A DNA stretch of 64,000 bases from Candidatus Omnitrophota bacterium (lineage in GTDB: Bacteria > Omnitrophota > Omnitrophia > Omnitrophales > JACROU01), in the NCBI GenBank assembly GCA_029261035.1, contig JAJDCD010000006.1, positions 23,167 to 87,166 of the forward strand, given 5' to 3'. How positions within the stretch are numbered: the first letter of the stretch is position 1; each line of letters begins with the position of its first letter. Positions 46,060 to 63,919 of the stretch are shown here, in pieces. The position numbers were made by a program, and so were the translations under genes. The notes under the pieces are model-generated. The model was not told the origin of the DNA. It saw only the letters and a program-made list of their open reading frames with translations, and did no database searches.

Positions 46060-46662
46060 TTAGATTAATTTAGCGATGTCTTTAAAAATTTGTTTTACTT
46101 GTTTTTTGTCCGTACCATCGTAGTAACCTCTAATTTGCAAGTCTTGATCCACTAGGATTAAGTTTGTGCTGTGAACGATAGGATTGTCTTTAGAACCTAA
46201 TTTAAATCCGTCATAGGCCAAATTATGAATGGATTCTTTTTGCCCAGTCAAAAAATGCCATCGTTTTGGATCGGCATTATATTTCTGAGCGTAGCTGGAT
46301 AAAACTTCAGGGCTATCATAATCTGGGTTGACAGTAAAAGAAACAAAATCTACATTATTTTCCAAAAGATAAGATCGATATAAATACGACATTTGTGTAC
46401 TCATCACAGGGCAAGGGCCTGAACAAGTGGTAAAGATAAAATTGGTAACCCAAACTTTGTTTAAGAGTTGATTATTAGAAAATGCTTGGTTCGTGCTAGA
46501 AGTTAAATTGAATGGTGGAACTTTGCCTAAAATAGGCAAGTCTTTTGAACTGTAAAAAAAGTGGGAGAAGAAAAAATAAGTAATAAATAATGAAAAAATA
46601 AGGAGCGATAGTATAGTGAAAAGTACCACACTTGCTTTGTTTGTTTTTTGTTGAGAACTCAT
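46060..46662 (-). CDS. SCO1/SenC family copper chaperone
   Basis: 200 residues. One N-terminal membrane anchor, then a thioredoxin fold with the copper ligands CSGPC and the His of NPIVHSTNLILVD. VTNFIFTTCSGPCPVMS is the family signature. SCO delivers copper to the CuA centre of subunit II, encoded four genes upstream. Confidence 0.93.
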   Translation of the reverse strand: MSSQQKTNKASVVLFTILSLLIFSLFITYFFFSHFFYSSKDLPILGKVPPFNLTSSTNQAFSNNQLLNKVWVTNFIFTTCSGPCPVMSTQMSYLYRSYLLENNVDFVSFTVNPDYDSPEVLSSYAQKYNADPKRWHFLTGQKESIHNLAYDGFKLGSKDNPIVHSTNLILVDQDLQIRGYYDGTDKKQVKQIFKDIAKLI

Positions 46663-46665
46663 GAA

Positions 46666-47529
46666 TTAAAATCCTATATCGGCAATAATGAGAATGAGGA
46701 GTAGAGGGAGGTAGATGACAGAGGCTTTAAGTAAATTCCGTGCACTTTCTACGGTTCTTGTTCTAACGAAAAGGATACTTGCTGAAAAATAAAAGAGCCC
46801 TAAACACAAAGTCCCAATGAAATAAATAAGCCCTGAATGCCCAAAGAGAGCAGGGAGTAGAGAAACAGGAATTAAAATAAAGGAATGCCATATAATTTGT
46901 CGGAACATGCGTTTTCCGTCAGGTTCAACGACAGGGAGCATCTTGAACCCTCCTTTTGCATAATCATCTTTGTAGATCCATGCAATAGCGTAAAAGTGAG
47001 GGTGTTGCCAAAGAAAAAGAATCCAAAATAGGATCCATGCTCCTGTGTCTACTTGACCTGTTGCTGCAGTCCAACCAGCTACAGGCGGCAAAGCTCCAGG
47101 GATAGCGCCTATTAACGTGTTTAACCAGGTTAATTTTTTTAAAGGAGTGTAGACATAGGCATAGAGAACGGATGTTAGCAATACGAGCAAAGCGGTTAAA
47201 AAATTAACTTTTATCAATAATAGAGTAACCCCAATTAACGTAAAGCTGATTCCAAAGATAAAAGCATGTTTTTCTGAAATCCTACCTGCTGGGACAGGTC
47301 TCTCTAAGGTTCTATCCATAAGACGATCGGCTTCTTTTTCTAGCTGTTGATTAAGAGCACTGGATCCTGCGGAAGCTAAACCGGTTCCTAATAGCGTATA
47401 CAAAAATAAGGGAATAGAATAAATCCCAATACCTCCCAGAAAAAAACCCATAGCTGTTGTGATAAGAACCATAAATAAAATGCGAGGCTTTGTGAGGCTT
47501 AAGTAGTCTTTAAGTAGGCTGATATTCAT
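46666..47529 (-). CDS. ctaB: Protoheme IX farnesyltransferase
   Basis: 287 residues, UbiA superfamily with about eight helices. The first aspartate-rich motif lies near NQQLEKEADRLMDRT and the second near YKDDYAKGG. It converts heme B to heme O, the substrate of CtaA. It is placed between ctaA and the SCO gene. Confidence 0.94.
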   Translation of the reverse strand: MNISLLKDYLSLTKPRILFMVLITTAMGFFLGGIGIYSIPLFLYTLLGTGLASAGSSALNQQLEKEADRLMDRTLERPVPAGRISEKHAFIFGISFTLIGVTLLLIKVNFLTALLVLLTSVLYAYVYTPLKKLTWLNTLIGAIPGALPPVAGWTAATGQVDTGAWILFWILFLWQHPHFYAIAWIYKDDYAKGGFKMLPVVEPDGKRMFRQIIWHSFILIPVSLLPALFGHSGLIYFIGTLCLGLFYFSASILFVRTRTVESARNLLKASVIYLPLLLILIIADIGF

Positions 47530-47537
47530 ACAATCCT

Positions 47538-48524
47538 TTAGTGAAGATGTGTTGATGATTTGCTAATAGATAATGGAAGAAGCCGTAATGTTAGAAAGCA
47601 GCTTAGTCCTAACAGTGTAGCACCATTTACAACATGGATACTCGTTATAATAAAATTTTTCCCACTCCAAATAGTAAAAGCACCCAAAAGAATTTGAATT
47701 AATATTAAGACAAAAATGCCGTAAGTAGGGAAGTTAGATTGAGGTACTTTGACAGGCATTCTCAATTTAACAAATAATAAAACAAATGCGACAACCCCAA
47801 TTAAATACCCCATCATTCGATGAATAAAATGAACTAAAACTTGAGCCATGTTGACAGGTTCTAAATTTGCGTTAAAACGCCACTTGTTTATTGTGACTAA
47901 GGAATCATTGTTGAAGGCTGGAATAATCTGGTTTGCTACCGTAGGGAAGTCTGGGATGGCTAGTCCAGAGTCTGTATGTCTCATCAATGCGCCAATAATT
48001 AATTGAACGTAGATTAATACTCCTAATAACAAAACAGTTCTGGTAAGAGGAGAAATATTAGCAGAGTTACTTTTTGGGATGGCTTCTCTAATAGCTCTTT
48101 CTGTAGATAGAGCGTAAGCAATGATAATGGTCAAAACAAAAAAGGTTTGTGATAGAACAGCATGAGAGACCGAGATGGGGGTTGGTAGGAGAAAGAGAAC
48201 GGTTAATCCGCCTAAAACTCCCTGGCAGATAACGGCTAACAAAGCAAGCCAACCTAAAGCTTTAACCCATGTTCTATTGTCTGAAAATTGAATCCAGAAG
48301 GCTTGTATCAAGGTAAAAAAACCCACAAGGGAAGCGATCATTCGATGACCATGTTCGTAAAACACTCCACCGACCATGGGAGGGAAAACCATTCCATAAG
48401 AAAGAGGCCAATCTGGAACGGCTAAGCCAGACCCCGTACTTGTAACCAAGCTACCAGCAAAAATTAGGAAAAGAGTTGAAAAACAGGTGAGTTTAGAAAA
48501 GCGTCTGAGCCAAGCATTATTCAT
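47538..48524 (-). CDS. ctaA: Heme A synthase
   Basis: 328 residues, eight helices, COX15/CtaA family. Conserved His-bearing segments are YEHGHRMIAS, ISVSHAVLSQ, VLVHFIHRMMGY and ITSIHVVNGA. It oxidises heme O to heme A for the aa3 oxidase. It overlaps ctaC by eight bases. Confidence 0.93.
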   Translation of the reverse strand: MNNAWLRRFSKLTCFSTLFLIFAGSLVTSTGSGLAVPDWPLSYGMVFPPMVGGVFYEHGHRMIASLVGFFTLIQAFWIQFSDNRTWVKALGWLALLAVICQGVLGGLTVLFLLPTPISVSHAVLSQTFFVLTIIIAYALSTERAIREAIPKSNSANISPLTRTVLLLGVLIYVQLIIGALMRHTDSGLAIPDFPTVANQIIPAFNNDSLVTINKWRFNANLEPVNMAQVLVHFIHRMMGYLIGVVAFVLLFVKLRMPVKVPQSNFPTYGIFVLILIQILLGAFTIWSGKNFIITSIHVVNGATLLGLSCFLTLRLLPLSISKSSTHLH

Positions 48525-49305
48525 TCACGCTTTCGACTTTCTCTACAATTGTTTCTTTGATTTCAGGAGCATTTTCGTTTAGCCAGTTCTTATATTTTTC
48601 TTGAGATTCTACAGTAAGAAAACCTCTCATACGGTAATGGCCTAAACCACAAAGCTGAGCACAGGCGATTTCATATTTACCTTCTTTGGTTGGAGTAAAC
48701 CAAAGAGGGATTTCCATTCCCGGAATAACATCTTGTAGCGCTCTCATTTCTCTAAGAGCAAAACTATGGACAACATCTTTGGAAGTTAAATAAACTAAGA
48801 TAGGTTGGTCGATAGGCACATGCAATTGATTAATTGTTATTATGTCATCTTGGGCAGCAGGGTCACTTCTATCTATGCCAATACTGTTATCTGATGAAAC
48901 TAGACCAATGTCTCTTTTGCCAAAAATACCATCTTTTCCAGGATAATGAATGTTCCAAGCAAATTGTTCTGCTATAACATGAACACGAACAGACTCTTCT
49001 TCCAGAGGAAAAGATCCGACTCGTTGAGCCCATAAAGGAAAAGCAAGCATGAGTAATAGAAGAGCTTCAACGATAACAACAGCAAACTCAACATAGTTAG
49101 ACATATGATTCTTCAGTCCCTCATAGTTGGCTTTAGGGTGCTTGGATTGTCTAAATTTAATTAATGTGAAGATGAAAAAAATAGACCAACCAACAAACAG
49201 AATGAGCATAAATATATGTACAAGGGCAAGCATATTGTCTATTTCAGCAGCATGCTTGGATGCTTGTTCTGGGAGTCCTAACAGTTTAACAATTAAATCA
49301 TTCAT
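48517..49305 (-). CDS. ctaC: Cytochrome c oxidase subunit II
   Basis: 262 residues. Two N-terminal helices, then the cupredoxin domain with CuA ligands: His in VVHSFALRE, and CAQLCGLGHYRM giving Cys-Cys-His-Met. There is no CxxCH motif, so no fused cytochrome c; the enzyme needs a separate donor. It lies downstream of subunits I, III and IV with two small genes between, an unusual order. Confidence 0.94.
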   Translation of the reverse strand: MNDLIVKLLGLPEQASKHAAEIDNMLALVHIFMLILFVGWSIFFIFTLIKFRQSKHPKANYEGLKNHMSNYVEFAVVIVEALLLLMLAFPLWAQRVGSFPLEEESVRVHVIAEQFAWNIHYPGKDGIFGKRDIGLVSSDNSIGIDRSDPAAQDDIITINQLHVPIDQPILVYLTSKDVVHSFALREMRALQDVIPGMEIPLWFTPTKEGKYEIACAQLCGLGHYRMRGFLTVESQEKYKNWLNENAPEIKETIVEKVESVNE

Positions 49306-49510
49306 TGATCAATTTCCCTTTTTTCCACAGATGAAAAATAAAGTAAGCAATAGCAAGTAAAACACTTCCAACGATAGCAATCAACGTATAGACCCCCATG
49401 ACTAAACCTTTTGAAAGGGGAGAGTCTGGATTGCCAAAACATACGGTGCAGGCATAAGCGTTAGGGCTTAATAGCAAAGTTATTAAAAAAAAGAATAACA
49501 ACTTAAGCAT
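49298..49510 (-). CDS. Small CxxC membrane protein of the cox cluster
   Basis: 70 residues. Signal sequence ending near NAYA, immediately followed by CTVCFGNPDSPLSKG and one membrane helix. From memory, similar short proteins with a CPVCFG-like start occur in oxidase clusters of Verrucomicrobia and Acidobacteria. The periplasmic Cys pair could bind copper or heme, but this is not shown. It overlaps ctaC by eight bases. Confidence 0.65.
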   Translation of the reverse strand: MLKLLFFFLITLLLSPNAYACTVCFGNPDSPLSKGLVMGVYTLIAIVGSVLLAIAYFIFHLWKKGKLINE

Positions 49511-49512
49511 TT

Positions 49513-49716
49513 CTAATTATCCAATTTTTTTAATTCTTTAAAAAACCAAATCAAATAAATAAATAATCCAACACCAGAAATAAAAGACAGCAACCCTAAA
49601 ATTAAGTAGGGTATAGAAGTATGCATAACGTAGTACTTCAAACAAAAAGCACCCAATCCAAATGAAAGGATTGTGGATAACGTAATTAATAGGATGTGGA
49701 CGGCTTTAAGCGACAT
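49513..49716 (-). CDS. Small two-helix membrane protein of the cox cluster
   Basis: 67 residues from the ATG at 49716, with GGTGG upstream; a TTG at 49737 is an alternative start. Two hydrophobic helices (about 7-25 and 35-57) and a Lys/Glu-rich end. No family recognised. It overlaps the end of the subunit IV gene by 11 bases, so it is translated with the oxidase. Confidence 0.6.
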   Translation of the reverse strand: MSLKAVHILLITLSTILSFGLGAFCLKYYVMHTSIPYLILGLLSFISGVGLFIYLIWFFKELKKLDN

Positions 49717-50026
49717 TTTTATATACCACCGGATCAAAATAAGCTAACAGTGAAAGAAAAATTAATCCTAGAAAAAAGATGGTTGTGAATAAGAGAACAA
49801 TAAGCACCAGCTTTTTTTCTGAAATTAAGTGCATAAAATAACAAATAACTAAAGAAGCTTTAATTGAAGCGATAAACAGAGCTAATGCAATGGTTCCAAA
49901 CGTGTTTAGCTGTAAATAGGAAGCGGCAACAGTAACAACGGTTAAAGCCATTAAAGCAACAAAAACACTAATATAAACACGAACGTGTTTTTTGATATGT
50001 TCTTCTGAATGTTCGATTTCGCTCAT
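49706..50026 (-). CDS. Cytochrome c oxidase subunit IV (COX4_pro type)
   Basis: 106 residues with three membrane helices. HVRVYISVFVALMALTVVTV and IKASLVICYFMHLISEKK are typical of prokaryotic subunit IV of the caa3/aa3 family. It lies directly after subunit III. Confidence 0.88.
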   Translation of the reverse strand: MSEIEHSEEHIKKHVRVYISVFVALMALTVVTVAASYLQLNTFGTIALALFIASIKASLVICYFMHLISEKKLVLIVLLFTTIFFLGLIFLSLLAYFDPVVYKNVA

Positions 50027-50038
50027 TGTTTACGCCTT

Positions 50039-50629
50039 TTAAAGTAAGTAGAGTACAGGGAACAAAAAAATCCATACCAGATCTACGAAATGCCAAAAAA
50101 GACCGGATGTTTCAACGCGATTTGTAAATTGCTCCGGGTTCGTTTGCCACATTTTGCTTCCAGGACCCCAAAAGTAAGCATTTACAACCATCCCGCAAAT
50201 TACGTGAAGAGCATGAAGCCCCGTCATTGTAAAATAAATTGCAAAGAAGACACTTTCTTTAGGGTAGTGGTGATGGCTGAATTTTCCATAGTATTCGAAT
50301 GATTTAACACCTAAGAAAACAAGCCCTAACAAAATAGTAAGTCCCATATAGATTTGGAACTTTTTGAAATTCTTCAACTTTAGAGAAGCCCATGCCATAA
50401 CCATTGTGATACTTGAAGAGATTAAGACGAGTGTATTGAAAGTTCCAATAGGAACGCTTAGATACGAAGAACCTTCTGGCCAACTTTCAGAACCAATTCG
50501 CAAGATAATATAAGAAGAGAAGAGAGCTCCAAAAAGCATCACTTCTGAAGCTAAGAATAGCCAAATGCCAATCTTGGAATTGATCAGTCCTGTGTCTGGT
50601 CTAGGTTTTACGGTGTAAGGAATTTCCAT
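50039..50629 (-). CDS. ctaE: Cytochrome c oxidase subunit III
   Basis: 196 residues, the five-helix form of subunit III. IGIWLFLASEVMLFGALFSSY near the start and TGLHALHVICGM plus FWHFVDLVWIFLFPVLYLL at the end are diagnostic. It stabilises the oxidase core. It is seven bases downstream of ctaD. Confidence 0.95.
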   Translation of the reverse strand: MEIPYTVKPRPDTGLINSKIGIWLFLASEVMLFGALFSSYIILRIGSESWPEGSSYLSVPIGTFNTLVLISSSITMVMAWASLKLKNFKKFQIYMGLTILLGLVFLGVKSFEYYGKFSHHHYPKESVFFAIYFTMTGLHALHVICGMVVNAYFWGPGSKMWQTNPEQFTNRVETSGLFWHFVDLVWIFLFPVLYLL

Positions 50630-50635
50630 TTTAAA

Positions 50636-52363
50636 TTAGATCTCCTTTTGACTCTGTGGTGAATAATCTTTAGATGAGCCTGGAACGCTATACTCATAAG
50701 GGCCTCGATAAACTTTAGGAGCTTCTAAAAAGTTGCCATGAGGAGGCGGTGTTGGGGTAGACCACTCCAAAGTGGTAGCTTCCCATGGGTTATCATTTGC
50801 TTTTTTCCCTTTGAAAGGACTCCAAAATAAATTAATAAGAAAAGGTATTTGAGCTAAAGCTAAAAGCCAAGCTGAAATGGACATAAATTCGTTCCAATGT
50901 AAAACGCCTTGAGCCAATTCGTAAGTAGCCCCACCATCATAAAGACGACGAGAAACACCAGCCATGCCTTGGATAAACATAGGCATAAATATACCATTCA
51001 TAAACAGGATAGAAGCCCAAAAGTGAGTTTTGCCCAATACTTCACTCATATGTCGCCCTGTTATTTTAGGAAACCAATAATAAACTCCAGCAAATAAAGC
51101 GAAGATGGTTCCTGGAGCAACAACGTAATGAAAATGTCCAATCACATAATAAGTATCATGAAGAGGAATGTCAGTAGCGTTAAAGGCTAGGGGAAGTCCT
51201 GTTAAACCCCCAATTCCAAACATGGGTAAAAAGCCTAAAGCAAAGAGCATTGGAGTATTAAATCGAATAGAACCACCCCATAGAGTAATAAACAAAGTTG
51301 TAATAATAACTACAGATGGGATAGATATAATCAGAGTGGTTGTTTGAAAAAAAGTACTCACCGTGGTACCCATTCCTGTAAGGTACATATGATGAGCCCA
51401 AACAATAAAAGAAAGAAAACCGAGAAATAAAATAGAATAAATCATAATTTTATAACCATACAAAGGTTTTCTTGTGTTGTTCGCTATGATTTCTGTCACA
51501 ATTCCTAACGCAGGGAGAATAAGCACATAAACTTCAGGGTGAGCTAAAAACCAAAAGAGATGTTGCCAAAGTAAGGGACTTCCACCGCCACTAATACCTA
51601 GAGCTTCACCTCCAACAACTAAACCTGAAGGCATAAAGAAACTGGTTCCAGCGAGTCTATCCATAAGTTGTAATACACCGGCTGCTTCAAGAGGAGGGAA
51701 TGCGAGTAAAAGCAAAAAAGCAGTAACTAGCTGAGCCCAAACAAAGAAGGGGAGACGAAACCAAGTCATTCCTTCAGCTCTTAATTGAACAACAGTCGTA
51801 ATAAAATTGACGGAACCTAATAAGGAAGAAGTAATTAAAAGCACCATACCAAACAACCAGTAAGTCTGTCCTATAGTGGCAGTTACAGAAAGTGGAGCGT
51901 AAGAAGTCCAGCCAGAATTTGCAGCACCTCCAGGAGCCCAAAAGCTTGCTACCATAACTACGCCACCTAATAAGTAGCACCAATAACTAATAGCATTTAG
52001 CTTAGGGAAGGCCATATCTGGAGCCCCAATTTGAAGAGGAACAATATAATTACCAAAAGCACCAAAAATAAGAGGTACGATAGCAAGGAATACCATAATA
52101 GTTCCATGCATAGCACCTAATGCGTTATAAAATTCAGGGAGCATATAACCCATAGGCATATTTGATTCGCCTAGTAGATTTCCAACAAAGGGAAGAGGCT
52201 GGCCTGGGTAGGCTAATTGCCAACGCATAAGCATCATTAGGCAAAACCCAAAAAACAAAAAGAAAGATCCTGTAATTCCGTATTGCAGACCAATAACCTT
52301 GTGGTCTGTAGAAAAGATGTATTTCCGCCAAAAGCCTAATTTTTCATGATTGTGATCGCTCAT
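50636..52363 (-). CDS. ctaD: Cytochrome c oxidase subunit I
   Basis: 575 residues from the ATG at 52363 (AAGG seven bases upstream); an upstream in-frame start at 52384 is less likely. Heme-copper core: STDHKVIGLQYG, the CuB/Tyr loop WFLAHPEVYVLILP, YVWAHHM-like IVWAHHMYLTG, and HDTYYVIGHFHYV with the heme ligands. Residue order marks an A-type proton-pumping oxidase. It opens the minus-strand cox operon. Confidence 0.96.
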   Translation of the reverse strand: MSDHNHEKLGFWRKYIFSTDHKVIGLQYGITGSFFLFFGFCLMMLMRWQLAYPGQPLPFVGNLLGESNMPMGYMLPEFYNALGAMHGTIMVFLAIVPLIFGAFGNYIVPLQIGAPDMAFPKLNAISYWCYLLGGVVMVASFWAPGGAANSGWTSYAPLSVTATIGQTYWLFGMVLLITSSLLGSVNFITTVVQLRAEGMTWFRLPFFVWAQLVTAFLLLLAFPPLEAAGVLQLMDRLAGTSFFMPSGLVVGGEALGISGGGSPLLWQHLFWFLAHPEVYVLILPALGIVTEIIANNTRKPLYGYKIMIYSILFLGFLSFIVWAHHMYLTGMGTTVSTFFQTTTLIISIPSVVIITTLFITLWGGSIRFNTPMLFALGFLPMFGIGGLTGLPLAFNATDIPLHDTYYVIGHFHYVVAPGTIFALFAGVYYWFPKITGRHMSEVLGKTHFWASILFMNGIFMPMFIQGMAGVSRRLYDGGATYELAQGVLHWNEFMSISAWLLALAQIPFLINLFWSPFKGKKANDNPWEATTLEWSTPTPPPHGNFLEAPKVYRGPYEYSVPGSSKDYSPQSQKEI

Positions 52364-52435
52364 AATAACCTTGCAAATCCTCATGTTCTAAAACGTTAAC
52401 GATATAACAACTTAGGGAGGGTGCTAAAGGGACTT

Positions 52436-55886: not shown

Positions 55887-56492
55887 ATGAAGACTCTTTC
55901 CTGTTTTTTAATTATTTTCCTTTCATTTTCTTCTTTGGTTTCGGCAGATCATATTACAGATCATGACATTGTTGAGCCGGAATCTAATATCAGAAACGAT
56001 GTTTATTACTCCGATGAAAAAGCTCTAAAAAAAATATTTCCTAAGTTAACGCATTTTTTACAAGAAAAAATTATTCTGGATTCTGAAGCTCAACAAAGGG
56101 TGGCTAAACGTGTCGGTCATCCTTTAGTCGAAGACTCTTTTAATGTTTGGATTGTTAAAAAAGAGGATAAGCTTTTAGGTTATGCGATTAAAGGGGAAGA
56201 AGTTGGAAAGTTTAGGCCGATTACGTCCATGGTGGGCGTTAAGCCCAATGGAAAAGTTCAAAATGTGGTTGTTATGGTTTACAGGGAAAGTCATGGGGAT
56301 GATGTTAAGCGTCAGAGGTTTCTCTACCAGTATAAAAATAAGGGAATTAAAGATCCTATCAGAATCAATAAGGATATTATGACCATTTCAGGGGCAACAG
56401 TTTCTGTTCGATCGATGAACCGGCAGTTACGCAAAGTAATTGCAGTTGTAAATGAGGCTTTTGTTAATGCAAATGAAACGAAACAAAGTTAA
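55887..56492 (+). CDS. FMN-binding domain protein (periplasmic flavoprotein)
   Basis: 201 residues. Signal peptide to about residue 20, then an FMN-binding domain as in NqrC/RnfG. MTISGATVSVRSM contains the flavinylation motif SGAT (T171 being the expected attachment residue). Such domains receive FMN covalently from ApbE, which is encoded next. It probably moves electrons outside the cytoplasm. Confidence 0.85.
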   Translation: MKTLSCFLIIFLSFSSLVSADHITDHDIVEPESNIRNDVYYSDEKALKKIFPKLTHFLQEKIILDSEAQQRVAKRVGHPLVEDSFNVWIVKKEDKLLGYAIKGEEVGKFRPITSMVGVKPNGKVQNVVVMVYRESHGDDVKRQRFLYQYKNKGIKDPIRINKDIMTISGATVSVRSMNRQLRKVIAVVNEAFVNANETKQS

Positions 56493-57480
56493 AACTCACT
56501 TTTTGTTTTTCTCTGTTTTTACGAGTTTAATTTTTATCTTTTCTTTTTTTAGTTGTTCTCCTCAAAAACAACTTTATTCACAACAACAAATGGTAATGGG
56601 TGTTGTGAATGAAATTTCGATTATTCATTCGAATGCAACGCAAGCCGAAAAAATCCTTCAAGAATCTTTCAAACTTTTAAAAAAGCTAGACCATCTGATG
56701 AGTCACTACAAGCAAGAAAGTGAAATTTCCAGATTAAACAGGGAAGCCTACACGGTCCCTGTGAAAGTATCTAAACATACATTTGATTTAATTGAAATAG
56801 CTTATGAGAACTACCTTGATTCTGGGGGGGCTTTTGATATATCCGTATTTCCTCTTATGAAGTTATGGGGTTTTTATGAGGGGAATCCTAGATTACCATC
56901 TGAGGAGGATGTAAGCCAAACGCTCTTAAAAGTTGGAATGGATTCTCTTCAAATGAATGCGGGGTCTCAGTCTATTATTTATCTCAAAGAAGATTTGGAA
57001 ATTGAATTGGGCTCTCTAGCTAAGGGGTATGCCTGCGACAAAATAGTAGGATTGTTAAAATCACAAAAAGTGAAGAGCGCTTTTGTGAATGTAGGAGGAA
57101 GTATTCGTGCTTTTGGTAAGAATTTAGAAAATAAGAATTGGCAGGCGCAGATCAGGCACCCTAGAAAACTAGAAGTTCTTGAATTAATGGTTAAGTTGGA
57201 TGACCGTTCGATTTCAACCAGTGGAGATTATGAACAGTTCTTTGAGGTTGAGGGAAAAAGATACGGTCATATCTTGAACCCTCTCACAGGGTATCCAGAC
57301 TCTAAATCTGTATCGGTTACTGTAATTGCTCCCACAGCACTCGAATCCGATGTCTTGTCTACAACCGTATATCTTTTAGGCCCAGAAAAGGGAAAGGTGT
57401 GGACCCGAAAGCTCAAGGGTGTAGAGGTCGTCCATTTCTATAAGGACGAAAATGGGAGTATTGGGCTGGTTCGCTACTAA
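56467..57480 (+). CDS. apbE: FAD:protein FMN transferase
   Basis: 337 residues from the ATG at 56467 (GAGG nine bases upstream); ATG at 56452 or 56473 are alternatives. Signal with lipobox-like SFFSC, then the ApbE domain: SGGAFDISVFPL, LGSLAKGYACD and GHILNPLTGYP with SVSVTVIAPTALESDVLST. It transfers FMN from FAD to Thr of the FMN-binding protein just upstream, overlapping it by 26 bases. Together they form a flavinylation module. Confidence 0.92.
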   Translation: MQMKRNKVKTHFLFFSVFTSLIFIFSFFSCSPQKQLYSQQQMVMGVVNEISIIHSNATQAEKILQESFKLLKKLDHLMSHYKQESEISRLNREAYTVPVKVSKHTFDLIEIAYENYLDSGGAFDISVFPLMKLWGFYEGNPRLPSEEDVSQTLLKVGMDSLQMNAGSQSIIYLKEDLEIELGSLAKGYACDKIVGLLKSQKVKSAFVNVGGSIRAFGKNLENKNWQAQIRHPRKLEVLELMVKLDDRSISTSGDYEQFFEVEGKRYGHILNPLTGYPDSKSVSVTVIAPTALESDVLSTTVYLLGPEKGKVWTRKLKGVEVVHFYKDENGSIGLVRY

Positions 57481-57735: not shown

Positions 57736-57969
57736 ATGAGTTTCCAAAAATTAAAAAATGATGATTCTAATGACTGGATATATTACTTTTCTCTAGTCAC
57801 ACAACTAGGTCTTGTGGTGGTAATTACGATTTTAGCTGGTTTCGGTATCGGTTTCTTCATCGATTCTAAGCTAAATACGTCACCCTTGTTTACTTTGATT
57901 TTTTTGGTTATGGGTATATTGGGTGGAATGATAAATGCTTATCAGATGATTACGCGAAAGATGAAGTAA
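57736..57969 (+). CDS. AtpZ/AtpI family ATP synthase assembly protein
   Basis: 77 residues with two membrane helices; the FGIGFFIDSKLNTSPLF loop between them is the AtpZ/AtpI motif. Members assist c-ring assembly or magnesium handling at the start of atp operons. Its stop codon overlaps the next start by one base. Confidence 0.85.
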   Translation: MSFQKLKNDDSNDWIYYFSLVTQLGLVVVITILAGFGIGFFIDSKLNTSPLFTLIFLVMGILGGMINAYQMITRKMK

Positions 57970-58361
57970 TGGCAAGTCAAGAGCCTCAAGAAATCGTTCA
58001 GTATAAGAGGAGAGTGATTGGAATATCTTGGTTGTTGGCTTCTGTGGCGGGTTTAATCTTTTTGATCTTTTCAAAGTGGAATTGGACGATTGGGATTTTT
58101 ATAGGGCAGTGTTTGGGCTCTCTTAATTTTTCGATGCTTTGCAAGCAAACGTCGAAATTGGCTGTTGTCGATTCGGATAAAGCAAAAGGATTCATGATTT
58201 CCGGACATTGGGTCCGTTATATTATTTTAGGCGTTGTTATTTATTTTGCTTATACGAAAGAAACTATTTCATTTATTGGATTTTTAATAGGCTTTTCTTT
58301 GTTTTATGTTGCTATTTTTTGGGATGGCATTTTTGGAATTAAAGAAAAGAAAATAAAGTAG
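57969..58361 (+). CDS. atpI: ATP synthase subunit I (AtpI-like)
   Basis: 130 residues with four helices; KRRVIGISWLLASVAGLIF and the GSLNFSMLCKQTSKLA region resemble the ATP synthase I family. It is thought to help assemble the c-ring, which is of interest given the unusual c subunits downstream. Confidence 0.75.
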   Translation: MASQEPQEIVQYKRRVIGISWLLASVAGLIFLIFSKWNWTIGIFIGQCLGSLNFSMLCKQTSKLAVVDSDKAKGFMISGHWVRYIILGVVIYFAYTKETISFIGFLIGFSLFYVAIFWDGIFGIKEKKIK

Positions 58362-58370
58362 AAATCATTC

Positions 58371-59270
58371 ATGAAAAAAATATTTATTCTTTTAGCTGTG
58401 ATTGTTGTTATTGCACTTCAGCTTTTTCTGGCTTCTCATATTGAGCCGGATCTGTCCCATGTTGGAGATGCTCCTCATAAAATTCATCACGTATTTGGAA
58501 TCGAAATCCCTTTTGGAGGAATTAACGAACCGACAATTTTTAATACTTGGATTGTGATGGGTTTTCTTGTTTTCTCTAGTCTCTTGATGTTGAGGGGGAA
58601 GAGAGATATCATTCCAGGTCGATGCCAAGCGTTTATGGAAATGATTGTGGGAGGTATTTTACAGATTTGCGAAGATACTTTAGGCCCTAAAGATGGGAGA
58701 AAATATTTACCTTATATTGGGACCATCTTCCTATTTATTTTAATCTCTAATTGGATGGCCGTTGTTCCGGTGCATATGTTTGAAGAAAAACCCACTAAAG
58801 ATTTAAATACCACTTTAGGCATGGGTGTTATGGTATTTTTTGTTTCTCATATTTCTGGAATAAGAGCAATGGGTATTAAGGGTTATGTAAGCCACTACTT
58901 TGAACCTTTTATTCCAATGGGCAAGTTTCAATGCCCTAACTTTTTATTTGCGCCACTTCATATTGTTGGAGAAGTTGGAAAAGTTGTTTCTCATAGTTTT
59001 CGTTTATTTGGAAATATTGTGGGTGAAACAATTATCATTATTGTTGTTTCTAATCTGGTTCACTTTGCGATGCTTCCTATTGGTTTGAATGTTTATTTCA
59101 TTTTGGGAATTGGAGCCATTCAGGCATTTGTGTTTACCGTTCTGGCTTTGATTTATCTTTCTATTCAAATTAAACATGATGACGATGACGAGCATATGAT
59201 TGAAAACTTAGAAGAAGACTTAGCGCATGCAAAGCAAGAGATTGCAGCTGCTAAAGAAGGGGTTGCGTAA
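58371..59270 (+). CDS. atpB: ATP synthase F0 subunit a
   Basis: 299 residues. Essential Arg is in HSFRLFGNIVGE on the penultimate helix; helices before and after fit subunit a, and LGIGAIQAFVFTVLALIYL is the last. A long N-terminal periplasmic segment and an acidic His/Asp-rich tail (DDDDEHMIENLEED) are present. It forms the ion path beside the c-ring. Its stop overlaps the fused c gene by one base. Confidence 0.95.
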   Translation: MKKIFILLAVIVVIALQLFLASHIEPDLSHVGDAPHKIHHVFGIEIPFGGINEPTIFNTWIVMGFLVFSSLLMLRGKRDIIPGRCQAFMEMIVGGILQICEDTLGPKDGRKYLPYIGTIFLFILISNWMAVVPVHMFEEKPTKDLNTTLGMGVMVFFVSHISGIRAMGIKGYVSHYFEPFIPMGKFQCPNFLFAPLHIVGEVGKVVSHSFRLFGNIVGETIIIIVVSNLVHFAMLPIGLNVYFILGIGAIQAFVFTVLALIYLSIQIKHDDDDEHMIENLEEDLAHAKQEIAAAKEGVA

Positions 59271-59995
59271 TGAATTTAGCTTCTGAAACCTCACTTCTTC
59301 TTTTCTCTTATGTGAATGCAGCGATTGCAGTCGGTTTAGGTTCTTTAGGTGCTGCGCTTGGTATTGGTATCGCTACAGCTCGTGGAGTACATGCAATTAA
59401 ACGACAACCAGAGGCTTCGGGCGTTGTTACTCGAACGCTTTTGATTGGTATTGCGGTGTCAGAGTCACCCGCTATTTTTGCATTGGTTGTTGGGATTATT
59501 CTTTTATTTAACCCAGGCGAAGCAGGGAATGCGACGCATACCATTGCTTTGTTAGGCGCGGGTATGTCTATTGGAATAGGAACGATCGGGTCGGCATTGG
59601 GAGAAGGTTATACTGCAGGACACGCTTGTGAATCTGTTGGAAGACAACCAGGAAATGAAGCCATTACGATTAGAACCATGTTGTTAGGGCAGGCTGTTGC
59701 AGAGTCGCCAGCTATTTTTTCTTTGGTAATTGCAATGCTTCTCATTTTTGTCAACATCAGTGAAAGCGTTGTTCATATGGCGGCTATGTTGTCGGCAGGA
59801 CTTTGTATGGGGATTGGAGCTGTTCCAGCAGGGTTAGGCGAAGGTTTTGCGGCAGGGATGGCAGCAAAGAATGTAGCTCGATATCCAAAAGCTCAGGGGC
59901 CCATTACAAGAACCATGTTGGTAGGTCAAGCTGTGACCGAATCAACAGCAATTTATTGTTTTGTAGTAGCAATGTGTTTGATTTATTTAACGTAA
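59270..59995 (+). CDS. atpE: Fused triple-hairpin ATP synthase c subunit
   Basis: 241 residues consisting of three tandem c-subunit hairpins (about 11-80, 91-160 and 169-240), hence six helices. Each outer helix keeps the ion-binding glutamate: E65 in VSESPAI, E145 in VAESPAI, E224 in VTESTAI. The inner helix has a second glutamate in hairpins 2 and 3 (E112, E191 in GEG) but isoleucine in hairpin 1 (I32). Polar loops read KRQP, GRQP and ARYP. Ordinary F-type c subunits have one hairpin of about 80 residues. The frame is uninterrupted and lies in a normal atp operon. Confidence 0.93.
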   Translation: MNLASETSLLLFSYVNAAIAVGLGSLGAALGIGIATARGVHAIKRQPEASGVVTRTLLIGIAVSESPAIFALVVGIILLFNPGEAGNATHTIALLGAGMSIGIGTIGSALGEGYTAGHACESVGRQPGNEAITIRTMLLGQAVAESPAIFSLVIAMLLIFVNISESVVHMAAMLSAGLCMGIGAVPAGLGEGFAAGMAAKNVARYPKAQGPITRTMLVGQAVTESTAIYCFVVAMCLIYLT

Positions 59996-60033
59996 GTCGA
60001 ATCAGTATAAAAATGTAATTTAAAAATTAATTT

Positions 60034-60067
60034 GCTGAAGGCTAAAAGCTAACAGCGAATAGATAAA
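60034..60067. repeat. 7-base-periodic repeat between the two c-subunit genes
   Basis: Five consecutive 7-base units from 60034: TGCTGAA, GGCTAAA, AGCTAAC, AGCGAAT, AGATAAA. It is one of the clearest members of the repeat family and occupies the gap before the single-hairpin c gene. Confidence 0.55.
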
Positions 60068-60088
60068 AAATAAACAAAGGAGTCAAAA

Positions 60089-60346
60089 ATGGACATTGCA
60101 ATGACAGGCGCGGAAGTTATTAAAACAGCCGCAGTAATTTCAGCTGGATTTTGTATGGGTTTTTCTTGCTTAGGCCCTGGTATTGGTGAAGGTTATGCTT
60201 GTGGAAAAGCAGTAGAAGCAATTGCAAAAGAACCTTCTCAAGCAGGTTCTATTACAAGAACCATGTTGGTAGGACAAGCGGTAACAGAATCTCCAGCTAT
60301 TTATGCGTTGGTGATTTCGCTTCTTCTATTGTTCGTAGTTAAATAA
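60089..60346 (+). CDS. atpE: Single-hairpin ATP synthase c subunit
   Basis: 85 residues, two helices. The outer helix has E67 in AVTESPAIYAL; the inner helix has E34 in GIGEGY, giving a two-carboxylate site as in hairpins 2 and 3 of the fused protein. The polar loop reads AKEP instead of RQP. AAGGAGT is the ribosome site. It is closest in sequence to hairpin 3 of the fused gene (shared RTMLVGQAVTES), suggesting descent by duplication. Confidence 0.95.
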   Translation: MDIAMTGAEVIKTAAVISAGFCMGFSCLGPGIGEGYACGKAVEAIAKEPSQAGSITRTMLVGQAVTESPAIYALVISLLLLFVVK

Positions 60347-60410: not shown

Positions 60411-60887
60411 ATGATTGAAGTCAGTTTTACGATGCTACTCCAGTGGCTGAACTTCGGAATTCTTCTTTTTCTTTTGACCTTCTTTTTATTTAAACCCATT
60501 TTAGGGGCTTTGGATAAAAGAAGAGAATTAATAAAAGGTCAAATTGATGGAGCAAAACAGAAGAATGAAGAGGCTGAAGAAGTCTTAAAAGAGTACCAAG
60601 AACGTCTCAATAATTTAAAGCTGGAAGGCCGAAAAATTATTGATGAAGCGCGTAAGGAAGCGGTGCTCGAAAAAGATAAGATTTTGGATGCAGCATCTGC
60701 AGAAGCAAAGTTAATATTAGAAAATGCTCAACTAGAACTAGAAACACATGTGAAAACAGTTCAGGAAGATTTGAAGAAACATACTGCTGAGCTTGTTGTG
60801 AATTGTGCGACTCAAGTTTTAGAGCGTGAAATTAATGAGAAAGATCATCAGAAGTACATTGATGAATTTATAGAAAGCGCAAAATAA
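60411..60887 (+). CDS. atpF: ATP synthase F0 subunit b
   Basis: 158 residues. One N-terminal helix (LLQWLNFGILLFLLTFFLF) and a long charged coiled coil typical of the peripheral stalk. Only one b gene is present, without a b-prime. Confidence 0.92.
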   Translation: MIEVSFTMLLQWLNFGILLFLLTFFLFKPILGALDKRRELIKGQIDGAKQKNEEAEEVLKEYQERLNNLKLEGRKIIDEARKEAVLEKDKILDAASAEAKLILENAQLELETHVKTVQEDLKKHTAELVVNCATQVLEREINEKDHQKYIDEFIESAK

Positions 60888-60891
60888 AGAT

Positions 60892-61470
60892 ATGTCGAAT
60901 AAAAAATCTTCAGCTATTTCTCAGCAAGGTGTGCAAAAGTTTGCGCGCGCTTTTTATCATTCGGTTAAAGGCGACCGTTTGGAGCCTATTATTGCGGAGT
61001 TTCGCATGGTTTCAGAACTTTTTCGTGCTTACCCTGATCTTTCTCAGGTTTTGAATCACATTTTGTTAAGCGAAGAAGAAAAACATAAAATTCTTAATAA
61101 AGTATTGGAAACTTGTTCTGTTTCTCAGGAAATGTCTAGTTTTTTAATGGCCCTTGTGAACCGAGGGCATGTGGATTGGTTAGAGGATATTTTTGAGTCG
61201 GTTCAAGCATTAATCGATAAAGATAATAATAAAGTTTTAGCTGAAGTTAAAGCAGCTATTAAGCTAACAGAAGTTCAAAGAGAGAAGTTGCAGCAAAGAT
61301 TAGAATTTATGACGGGCAAGCAAGTAGAACTGTCTGTCGAGTATGACCCATCTATTATTGGGGGGATTGTAGCTCAAGTGGGGGATCGAATATTTGATTC
61401 TAGTGTTCAAAATCGTTTAGCAATGCTGAAAGATAAGATGTCATATTCTTATAATGAATCGAAGGCTTAA
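60892..61470 (+). CDS. atpH: ATP synthase F1 subunit delta
   Basis: 192 residues. Helical N-terminal domain (VQKFARAFYHSV) and the C-terminal VEYDPSIIGGIVAQVGDRIFDSS signature. It links the b stalk to the alpha3beta3 head. It starts four bases after atpF. Confidence 0.92.
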   Translation: MSNKKSSAISQQGVQKFARAFYHSVKGDRLEPIIAEFRMVSELFRAYPDLSQVLNHILLSEEEKHKILNKVLETCSVSQEMSSFLMALVNRGHVDWLEDIFESVQALIDKDNNKVLAEVKAAIKLTEVQREKLQQRLEFMTGKQVELSVEYDPSIIGGIVAQVGDRIFDSSVQNRLAMLKDKMSYSYNESKA

Positions 61471-61514: not shown

Positions 61515-63029
61515 ATGAAAATCAAATCAGAAGAAATTACCTCGCTTTTAAGAGCAGAGATTGAAGAGTATAAAAAGAAAATTAATGTTCGTGATGTGGG
61601 TGTTGTCGTTAAGATTGGAGATGGTATTGCCACCATTTTTGGTTTGGAAAATGCTATGTATGGAGAACTGATAGAGTTCCCTGGAGGTGTTTATGGAATG
61701 GCGCTTAACTTAGAAGATGAAACTATTGGTGCTGTGGTATTTGGTTCCGATTCAAAAATTAAAGAAGGTGACGAGGTGAAGGGTACAGGACGTGTTGTTG
61801 ACGTGCCTGTTGGAGATGAACTTGTGGGGCGTGTTGTTGATGCGTTGGGTCAGCCGTTAGATGGAAAAGGCCCTATAAAATCTACTAAGCGACGTCGGGT
61901 TGAAACAATGGCTCCTGGTGTAATCTCTAGGCAGCCTGTGAAAGAACCTTTGCAGACAGGAATCAAGGCAATTGATTCCATGATCCCAGTGGGACGGGGT
62001 CAAAGAGAATTGATTATTGGAGACCGTCAAACTGGAAAAACAGCGGTTGCTTTGGATACGATCTTAAACCAAAAAGGACAAGATGTTATTTGTATTTATG
62101 TTGCGATAGGACAAAAAAATTCGAGTGTTGCTCAGGTAATAAAAACTCTTGAAGAGAATGACGCAATGAAATATTCCGTTGTCGTATCTGCAGGTAGTTC
62201 TGACTCTGCTCCATTGCAATATTTAGCTCCTTATGCGGGTTGTGCAATTGGGGAGGAGTTCCGGGATACAGGAAGGCATGCCTTAATCATTTATGATGAT
62301 TTATCCAAACACGCTATTAGTTATCGTCAACTCTCTCTTCTTCTAAGAAGACCTCCAGGTCGTGAAGCGTTTCCAGGAGATATTTTTTACGCACATTCTC
62401 GTTTGCTGGAAAGAGCAGCTAAGATGGGGGAAGAGCATGGCGGAGGATCTTTGACAGCGTTACCTATTATTGAAACACAAGCAGGAGACGTATCTGCATA
62501 TATTCCAACAAATGTAATTTCAATTACAGACGGACAGATTTATCTTGAAGCAGATCTTTTCTATCAAGGCGTTCGTCCTGCTGTGAATGTGGGCTTGTCT
62601 GTATCTCGTGTGGGTGGAAATGCTCAATTTAAAGCAATGAAACAAGTTGCAGGTCGTTTGCGTTTAGATTTAGCTCAGTACCGAGAAATGGAAGCTTTTG
62701 CTCGATTTGGTACCGAGTTAGATGAATCGACACAAAATCAATTGGAAAGAGGAAGACGTCTGGTAGAAATTTTAAAGCAAGGACAATATGTTCCTATGTC
62801 TCTTTCTTTACAGGTAATTGTTGTGTACGCAGGAGTAAACGGATTCTTGGATGATATTGAAGCCGAACAAATACAGAAATTTGAAGCAGGTTTTACTCAA
62901 TATCTTACTTCTGAAAAACAAGACTTGTTAGATAAAATTGAAATAGGAAAAGAAATTACAGACGAAATCAAAGCTTTAATTGAATCTGAAATTAACACTT
63001 TTAAGAAAAAATTCACTATTAAAGCTTAA
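61515..63029 (+). CDS. atpA: ATP synthase F1 subunit alpha
   Basis: 504 residues. Walker A GDRQTGKT (about 170), the alpha-specific QKNSSVAQV and the signature [17 protein letters not shown]. This is a true F-type alpha chain, not a V/A-type subunit B, so the unusual c-ring belongs to an F-type enzyme. Confidence 0.97.
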
Positions 63030-63046: not shown

Positions 63047-63919
63047 TTGGCTACTCTTAGAGAAATTAAACGAAGACTCAGTGGTGTTAAAAACACACAA
63101 AAAATCACCAAAGCAATGAAGGTGGTTGCTGCGACTAAATTAAAAAAGGAAGAAAAAAAAGCTGTTGGAAGTCGTCCTTTTTTTAAGCATATCGAAAATA
63201 TGCTTTCGGATTTAGTTCAAGGCGGTATGGGAGAGAATCATCCTTACCTGAGTGATTCAGAAAAGAAGAAGACTTTGATTTTAGTTATTTCTTCTGACCG
63301 TGGTTTGTGTGGCTCTTTTAATACATCTTTGACTCGTAAAGTTTATGAATTTGCGCAGAAAGAAAAGAAGAAGGGTAAAGAAGTAAGCTTTTTTGTCGCA
63401 GGAGTTAAAGGGGTTCGCTTTTTTGAAGCTAAGAATGAAGCTATGTTTAAGACCACTATCGGGATTGATAAAAAAGACAAAGTTGAAATTGCAAAAGAGC
63501 TTTCTGATGAATTGACTCAGATTTTCGTTGAAAAAAAGTTTGATGAAATTTGTGTCGCTTTTAATGCTTTTCATAGCCGTAGTAGTTATTCTGTGGAGTT
63601 AGCACCTTATTTACCTTTATCTTTTTCTGAAGGCGATGATGATGGGAAGTCTGTTCATTCAGGTTACTTTGATTTTGAGCCATCATCTCAGGCTGTTTTA
63701 GATTTGTTATTGCCTTTATTTTTAGAAGTGAAAATTTATCGAGCGTTGGTTGAGTCGCAAGCTTCTGAAGAATCCGCTCGAATGTTAGCTATGGATTACG
63801 CATCTGAAAATGCGAATGAAATTATTGAAGATTTAACATTGCAGTATAACCGTTTGCGCCAAGCCAGTATTACGAAAGAGTTGTCCGAAATTGTGGGTGG
63901 CGCTGAAGCATTACAATAG
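63047..63919 (+). CDS. atpG: ATP synthase F1 subunit gamma
   Basis: 290 residues from a TTG start with GGAG six bases upstream; no in-frame ATG fits. The N-terminal helix ATLREIKRRLSGVKNTQKIT and the C-terminal NRLRQASITKELSEIVGGA are gamma signatures. It is the central shaft that contacts the c-ring polar loops. atpD and atpC should lie beyond the window end. Confidence 0.96.
   Translation: MATLREIKRRLSGVKNTQKITKAMKVVAATKLKKEEKKAVGSRPFFKHIENMLSDLVQGGMGENHPYLSDSEKKKTLILVISSDRGLCGSFNTSLTRKVYEFAQKEKKKGKEVSFFVAGVKGVRFFEAKNEAMFKTTIGIDKKDKVEIAKELSDELTQIFVEKKFDEICVAFNAFHSRSSYSVELAPYLPLSFSEGDDDGKSVHSGYFDFEPSSQAVLDLLLPLFLEVKIYRALVESQASEESARMLAMDYASENANEIIEDLTLQYNRLRQASITKELSEIVGGAEALQ

What the first reader, a model, noticed from the sequence alone, without database searches (positions are those of the whole stretch)
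59270..60346. F-type ATP synthase with a three-hairpin fused c subunit plus a separate single-hairpin c
The sequence shows one 241-codon frame with three c-like hairpins, each with its outer-helix glutamate (E65, E145, E224), followed by an 85-codon single c gene. Fused c subunits are established for V-type proteolipids and some archaeal A-type rotors. Among bacterial F-types, Acetobacterium woodii mixes a two-hairpin c (one carboxylate) with single c. A triple hairpin keeping all three carboxylates in an F-type operon is, to my knowledge, not described. If both proteins enter one ring, the ring size and ion-to-ATP ratio would be constrained in a new way.
Basis: partly seen in the sequence, partly recalled or inferred. 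Interest (0 to 1): 0.9.

Follow-up and report, generated by a model that had tools for sequence, protein, structure and literature searches.

The report
Triple-hairpin rotor subunit in ATP synthase
An uncultured Omnitrophota bacterium appears to build the turning ring of its ATP synthase from an ordinary small subunit plus an unusual triple-length one that keeps all three ion-binding sites, and the same arrangement is conserved in two other genera.

Summary
An F-type ATP synthase operon in an Omnitrophota genome has a 241-residue c subunit with three complete hairpins, all three outer-helix glutamates (E65, E145, E224), and a separate 85-residue c. It is not an assembly artefact: two MAGs of other genera in the family carry the same layout at 77-80% identity, with saturated silent sites, all ion-site residues unchanged and hairpins only 35-44% alike. 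Each hairpin forms its own clade across genera, so the triplication is old.

Most likely this is a heteromeric F-type rotor, mechanistically like the Acetobacterium woodii hybrid ring, but no carboxylate is lost, and the lineage looks proton-based (cytochrome oxidase cluster in the window, complex I-type subunits, K+-independent-type pyrophosphatase, no Rnf/Nqr). The sites are unequal: hairpin 1 has Ile where hairpins 2, 3 and the single c carry a second carboxylate. Omnitrophota relatives have two-hairpin c's that lost one or both carboxylates, apparently independently of A. woodii. No triple-hairpin F-type c was found in the literature held here, but phyla beyond Omnitrophota could not be searched properly. 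Co-assembly, ring size and coupling ion are untested.

The parts
57736..57969 (+). AtpI/AtpZ-like small membrane protein (ATPase_gene1)
   Evidence: PF09527, E 7.9e-16
57969..58361 (+). ATP synthase I chain
   Evidence: PF03899, E 1.1e-13
58371..59270 (+). atpB, subunit a (stator); conserved stator arginine in SHSFRLFGN
   Evidence: PF00119, E 7e-47; arginine motif
59270..59995 (+). c3: three-hairpin c subunit, 241 aa; ATG overlaps the stop codon of atpB (TAATG); outer carboxylates E65, E145, E224; inner-helix residues I32, E112, E191
   Evidence: PF00137 in three stretches, E 1.9e-38; conserved in two other genera; site table
59270..59518 (+). hairpin 1: I32, V63, E65, S66, P67, F70
   Evidence: site table; clade with hairpin 1 of the two-hairpin c's of relatives, support 96/90
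59519..59755 (+). hairpin 2: E112, V143, E145, S146, P147, F150 at the positions of E32, V63, E65, S66, T67, Y70
59756..59992 (+). hairpin 3: E191, V222, E224, S225, T226, Y229; same ligand set as Fusobacterium nucleatum c
   Evidence: F. nucleatum ligand set from PMC3692424
60077..60082 (+). Shine-Dalgarno-like site before c1; stronger than that of c3 in all three genomes
   Evidence: sequence; duplex energies -8.2/-8.5/-8.7 (c1) against -7.4/-5.7/-1.3 kcal/mol (c3) with a generic anti-SD
60089..60346 (+). c1: ordinary single-hairpin c subunit, 85 aa; E32, V63, E65, S66, P67, Y70
   Evidence: PF00137, E 1.1e-18; site table
60411..60887 (+). atpF, subunit b
   Evidence: PF00430, E 2.4e-26
60892..61470 (+). 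atpH, subunit delta
   Evidence: PF00213, E 5.1e-41
61515..63029 (+). atpA, subunit alpha
   Evidence: ORF; collinear in relatives by phmmer
63047..63919 (+). atpG, subunit gamma
   Evidence: ORF; collinear in relatives by phmmer

Best explanation
This is an F-type ATP synthase whose membrane rotor is built from two c proteins: a three-hairpin c3 and a single-hairpin c1. SHOWN by sequence: F-type operon, conserved three-hairpin frame, three conserved outer carboxylates, separate c1, strong selection, presence in three genera. INFERRED: c3 enters the ring as a ready-made arc of three adjacent c positions and the rest is filled by c1. c3 is probably present in few copies (perhaps one per ring, like A. 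woodii c1), because its start overlaps the stop of the single-copy subunit a and its ribosome-binding site is weaker than that of c1. Every hairpin carries a carboxylate, so each should carry one ion past subunit a and the ion/ATP ratio is hairpins/3; the fusion restricts ring size to n = 3p + q rather than gearing it down. The coupling ion is more likely H+ than Na+ in this lineage. Hairpin 1, which lacks the second carboxylate, makes one site per c3 chemically different from the others.
For: Pfam and operon; same layout in two other genera with saturated silent sites and invariant site residues. Each hairpin forms its own supported clade across the genera (bootstrap 98-100), so the triplication predates them. 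The AF2 model (pLDDT 70.7, pTM 0.68, three sequences) gives six long helical stretches in three hairpins; hairpins 1-2 superpose on A. woodii two-hairpin c1, Z 17.6, rmsd 2.2 over 163 residues, the top hit in both structure searches. By sequence the closest solved chain is also A. woodii c1. Precedents: natural 9:1 mixed ring in A. woodii (PMC8904574); engineered single-chain c10 rings work (PMC8809890). Proton side: COX1/2/3, CtaA, UbiA and SCO1 genes in the window, eight PF00361 matches per genome, no Rnf/Nqr, pyrophosphatase with the Lys of the K+-independent H+-pumping family. Two carboxylates need not mean Na+: a c17 ring with that motif is H+-specific (PMC5376962). Translation signals.
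Against: No biochemical evidence that c3 and c1 share a ring. Hairpin 3 and c1 have all or nearly all of the F. nucleatum Na+ ligand set, so Na+ coupling is not excluded. Ribosome-binding energies use a generic anti-SD and the difference in the window itself is small (-7.4 against -8.2). The AF2 model is of middling confidence and the other four models are poorer.
Confidence: 0.72

Rival explanations
1. A Na+-coupled mixed rotor of the A. woodii kind: same architecture, but the ring binds Na+ through the two-carboxylate motif and the fusion serves anaerobic, low-energy life.
For: Hairpin 3 has E32, V63, E65, S66, T67, Y70, identical to Na+-binding F. nucleatum c; c1 and hairpin 2 nearly so. 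Relatives with two-hairpin c's have Rnf and a K+-dependent-type pyrophosphatase.
Against: In the three genomes with c3, Rnf/Nqr were not found and complex I-type subunits are present; the window has a cytochrome oxidase cluster; G000 and G042 have a K+-independent-type pyrophosphatase (the G028 pyrophosphatase is a fragment and could not be typed). Hairpins 1 and 2 lack Y70 and hairpin 1 lacks a polar ligand at 32. No carboxylate is lost.
Confidence: 0.18
2. c1 alone forms the working ring; c3 is an assembly seed, an alternative rotor protein used under other conditions, or makes a separate homomeric ring.
For: c3 and c1 are separate genes with different translation signals; nothing tested shows co-assembly.
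Against: All ion-site residues of c3 are kept under strong selection in three genera, which a seed would not need; the two genes always sit together between a and b; A. woodii mixes its two kinds in one ring.
Confidence: 0.09
3. Artefact: tandem c genes joined by misassembly or a lost stop codon.
For: The window is a draft assembly in 26 contigs; no read mapping was available.
Against: Same fusion in two separately assembled MAGs of other genera; reading frame kept through both linkers; hairpins too divergent to be collapsed by an assembler.
Confidence: 0.01

Closest known systems
Acetobacterium woodii F/V-hybrid rotor (c1 with two hairpins plus c2/c3; PDB 4BEM), also Clostridium aceticum c1/c2
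   Same: F1Fo operon with a multi-hairpin c gene and single-hairpin c gene(s); best sequence and structure match
   Different: Known c1 has two hairpins and has lost the carboxylate of hairpin 2 (Q); here three hairpins and none lost. Known ones are Na+ enzymes with Q32; here E32 or I32. The E-to-Q loss in Omnitrophota two-hairpin c's does not group with the A. woodii hairpin (AU p 0.008)
Fusobacterium nucleatum two-carboxylate c11 ring (3ZK1) and Burkholderia pseudomallei N-ATPase c17 ring
   Same: A glutamate in the inner helix as well as the outer one, here in hairpins 2 and 3 and in c1
   Different: Those rings are homomeric and single-hairpin; hairpin 1 here has I32
Methanocaldococcus jannaschii three-hairpin and Methanopyrus kandleri 13-hairpin c of A/V-type ATPases
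   Same: Fused hairpins, described in PMC2359735; in M. kandleri all sites are kept
   Different: A/V-type complexes; no match to the A/V-type stator subunit (PF01496) was found in this genome
Two-hairpin c of the plasmid-borne N-type ATPase of Salinigranum marinum (WP_318570998.1)
   Same: Fused c in an F/N-type operon with both outer glutamates kept
   Different: Two hairpins, Q in the inner helix, N-type gene order, archaeal plasmid, no second c gene in the stretch shown
Engineered fused c multimers (Bacillus PS3 single-chain c10)
   Same: Shows that fused F-type hairpins can make a working ring (PMC8809890)
   Different: Artificial; all hairpins identical

Membership tests
F-type ATP synthase c subunit (PF00137) | two-helix hairpin with polar loop and outer-helix carboxylate | tested here: met
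   three hairpins, E65/E145/E224, loops RQP, RQP, RYP
F-type (F1Fo) ATP synthase | operon with a, b, delta, alpha, gamma of F-type | tested here: met
   beta lies beyond the contig end but follows gamma in both relatives
A/V-type ATPase | V-type stator subunit I/a (PF01496) | tested here: not met
   no match in this genome; control genomes gave matches
N-type ATPase | AtpR subunit and absence of delta | tested here: not met
   AtpR match below cut-off (20.8 against 26 bits); delta present. The defining features are from general knowledge
A. woodii-type hybrid rotor | multi-hairpin and single-hairpin c genes in one F1Fo operon | tested here: met
A. woodii-type hybrid rotor | multi-hairpin c has fewer carboxylates than hairpins | tested here: not met
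   3 of 3 kept in all three genera
A. woodii-type hybrid rotor | Na+ motif Q....ES/T | tested here: not met
   I or E at 32 in every hairpin
A. woodii-type hybrid rotor | both kinds of c in one ring | not testable with these tools
   needs the purified complex
two-carboxylate c (F. nucleatum) | E32 plus E65 with V63, S66, T67, Y70 | tested here: inconclusive
   full set in hairpin 3; E32+E65 in c1 and hairpin 2 but with P67 (and F70 in hairpin 2); not in hairpin 1

The most novel reading that the evidence does not exclude
Each ring holds exactly one c3, so the rotor has a built-in asymmetry: three consecutive sites of graded chemistry (I32/E65; E32/E65 without Tyr; full E32/E65/Tyr) among uniform c1 sites. 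This would be an F-type ring with chemically different kinds of ion site, arisen when a Na+-type two-hairpin ancestor was turned into a fully loaded proton rotor in a respiring lineage.
Probability: 0.2. Interest if true: 0.85.

Novelty: new variant of a known kind. Interest (0 to 1): 0.62.

Why it matters
c-ring composition sets how many ions a cell pays per ATP. Natural mixed F-type rotors are known from anaerobic Na+ acetogens, where fusion comes with loss of a carboxylate and is read as gearing down for low energy. A conserved triple fusion that keeps all sites, in a lineage with respiratory genes, separates fusion from gearing and asks what else fusion is for (ring size, assembly, asymmetry). 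With relatives whose extra c keeps one or no carboxylate, Omnitrophota offer a natural series to test how many dead positions an F-type ring tolerates; in engineered Bacillus PS3 a single E-to-Q in a fused c10 stops ATP synthesis (PMC8809890).

Tried and rejected
Assembly artefact: rejected (see observation check). A/V-type complex: rejected; F-type operon, best sequence matches are F-type c's, and PF01496 is absent. Common origin of the E-to-Q loss with A. woodii: rejected at p 0.008. Which hairpin was duplicated to give three: not resolved; hairpins 2+3, hairpin 3 + c1, and hairpin 3 or 2 + hairpin 2 of the two-hairpin c all fit. Alpha-subunit tree: deep branches unresolved. Literature: no hit for 'three hairpins' with c subunit and ATP synthase; the key review of hybrid rotors (Brandt and Mueller 2015, doi 10.1515/hsz-2015-0137) and the 4BEM structure paper are not held, so absence from the literature is not proven.

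Full report
OBSERVATION. The window carries atpI-like, ATP-synt_I, a, a 241-aa c, an 85-aa c, b, delta, alpha and gamma in one direction. The contig ends at the window end. The 241-aa frame has three PF00137 stretches, the 85-aa frame one. The a stop and c3 start overlap (TAATG), c3 and c1 are 93 nt apart, and c1 has an AAGGAG-like ribosome-binding site.

NOT CHANCE OR ARTEFACT. Within the genome the c3 hairpins are 35-44% identical in protein (35-48% when c1 is included), so repeat collapse is not credible. Two MAGs of other genera of the same family (G028 = JACROU010000023.1; G042 = JACQQR010000106.1, both titled Candidatus Omnitrophota) have c3 of 239 aa at 77-80% identity and c1 beside it, between a and b. 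Silent sites are saturated while 6-16% of replacement sites differ. In a tree of single hairpins, hairpins 1, 2 and 3 each form a clade across the genera. These three were the only genomes with a three-hairpin match among the Omnitrophota genomes searched: 285 with c3 as query, 49 of the class, and 384 with the two-hairpin c as query.

ION SITES. In F. nucleatum numbering (ligand roles from PMC3692424, and PMC2359735): hairpin 1 I32 V63 E65 S66 P67 F70; hairpin 2 E32 V63 E65 S66 P67 F70; hairpin 3 E32 V63 E65 S66 T67 Y70; c1 E32 V63 E65 S66 P67 Y70. These residues are identical in the three genera. Residues 32 and 65 come from one hairpin and 63 and 66 from its neighbour. V63 and S66 are present everywhere, so those four ligands are complete at every interface except residue 32 of hairpin 1; the missing tyrosines may also weaken some sites (inference).

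RELATIVES. G070 and G080 (same class) have a two-hairpin c with I32/E65 in hairpin 1 and S or A32/Q65 in hairpin 2. G070 has a normal c1 beside it; in G080 only the end of the c1 is seen, on another contig. G191 (same phylum) has a two-hairpin c with no outer carboxylate at all (G65 and Q65) beside a, and a normal c1 about 7 kb away. G138 and G278 have a single-hairpin extra c with S65 upstream of a, plus a normal c. Hairpin 1 of c3 groups with hairpin 1 of these two-hairpin c's (96/90), so c3 shares ancestry with them; the extra single c may be related to hairpin 1 (not rejected). Hairpin 2 of A. woodii c1 does not group with hairpin 2 of the Omnitrophota two-hairpin c (AU p 0.008), which points to independent loss. 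Some of these branches are long, so the deeper joins deserve caution.

BIOENERGETIC SETTING. The window has COX1, COX3, COX2, CtaA, UbiA and SCO1 genes at 46060-52384. The three c3 genomes have eight PF00361 matches each, no Rnf/Nqr match and, where the motif could be read (G000 and G042), a pyrophosphatase with GNTTKA. G070, G080 and G191 have Rnf/Nqr-family matches and GNTTAA. Lys marks the K+-independent H+-pumping family; all characterized Na+ pumps belong to the Ala family (PMC9408878). A published survey finds complex I and cytochrome oxidases in some Omnitrophota classes (PMC10066038). I therefore favour H+ coupling, with the caution that the two-carboxylate motif occurs in both a Na+ ring (F. 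nucleatum) and a H+ ring (B. pseudomallei).

MECHANISM. In the predicted model hairpins 1-2 of c3 superpose on A. woodii c1. Natural co-assembly of multi- and single-hairpin c's is established for A. woodii (9:1) and engineered fusions work. I infer a mixed ring with few c3, possibly one. Translation signals agree weakly: c1 has a stronger ribosome-binding site than c3 in all three genomes. All hairpins keep their carboxylate, so ions per turn should equal hairpins per ring.

KNOWN OR NEW. Known kind: mixed F-type rotors. New in this variant: three hairpins in an F-type c, all carboxylates kept, unequal sites, lineage with respiratory genes. From memory, not checked here: a 2015 survey of hybrid rotors reported about a dozen further species with one F- and one V-type c gene, all anaerobes. 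The tools allowed no thorough search of other phyla, so rarity outside Omnitrophota is not established.

Noticed in passing
L039:5579-6061 (-) (G191): Two-hairpin c without any outer carboxylate (G65 and Q65) beside a, in a genome whose normal c lies with b-delta-alpha-gamma-beta about 7 kb away. Two dead positions per copy would be expected if it enters the ring.
   Followed up: partly
L046:1017-1268 and L047:905-1156 (G138, G278): Extra single-hairpin c with Ser instead of the carboxylate, placed before atpB; a normal c follows atpB. Possible unfused relative of hairpin 1.
   Followed up: partly
L038:12008-12487 and L036:478-990: Two-hairpin c with E-to-Q in hairpin 2, an apparently independent parallel to A. 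woodii c1.
   Followed up: yes
L091:2959-3507: Salinigranum marinum plasmid N-type ATPase with a 182-aa two-hairpin c keeping both glutamates; annotated simply as subunit C.
   Followed up: no
window 46060-52384 (-): Cytochrome c oxidase cluster (COX1, COX3, COX2, CtaA, UbiA, SCO1) a few kb from the ATP synthase operon.
   Followed up: partly
L088, L089 against L085-L087: Pyrophosphatase type differs: GNTTKA in two c3 genomes, GNTTAA in relatives with Rnf and two-hairpin c; suggests a switch of coupling ion within the phylum.
   Followed up: partly
L034:11588-12463: The gamma gene of G028 is split into two frames, a possible frameshift in the MAG.
   Followed up: no
window 55887-57480 (+): FMN-binding-domain protein followed by an ORF that looks ApbE-like (by eye, not tested) just upstream of the operon, although no Rnf/Nqr was found in the genome.
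   Followed up: no
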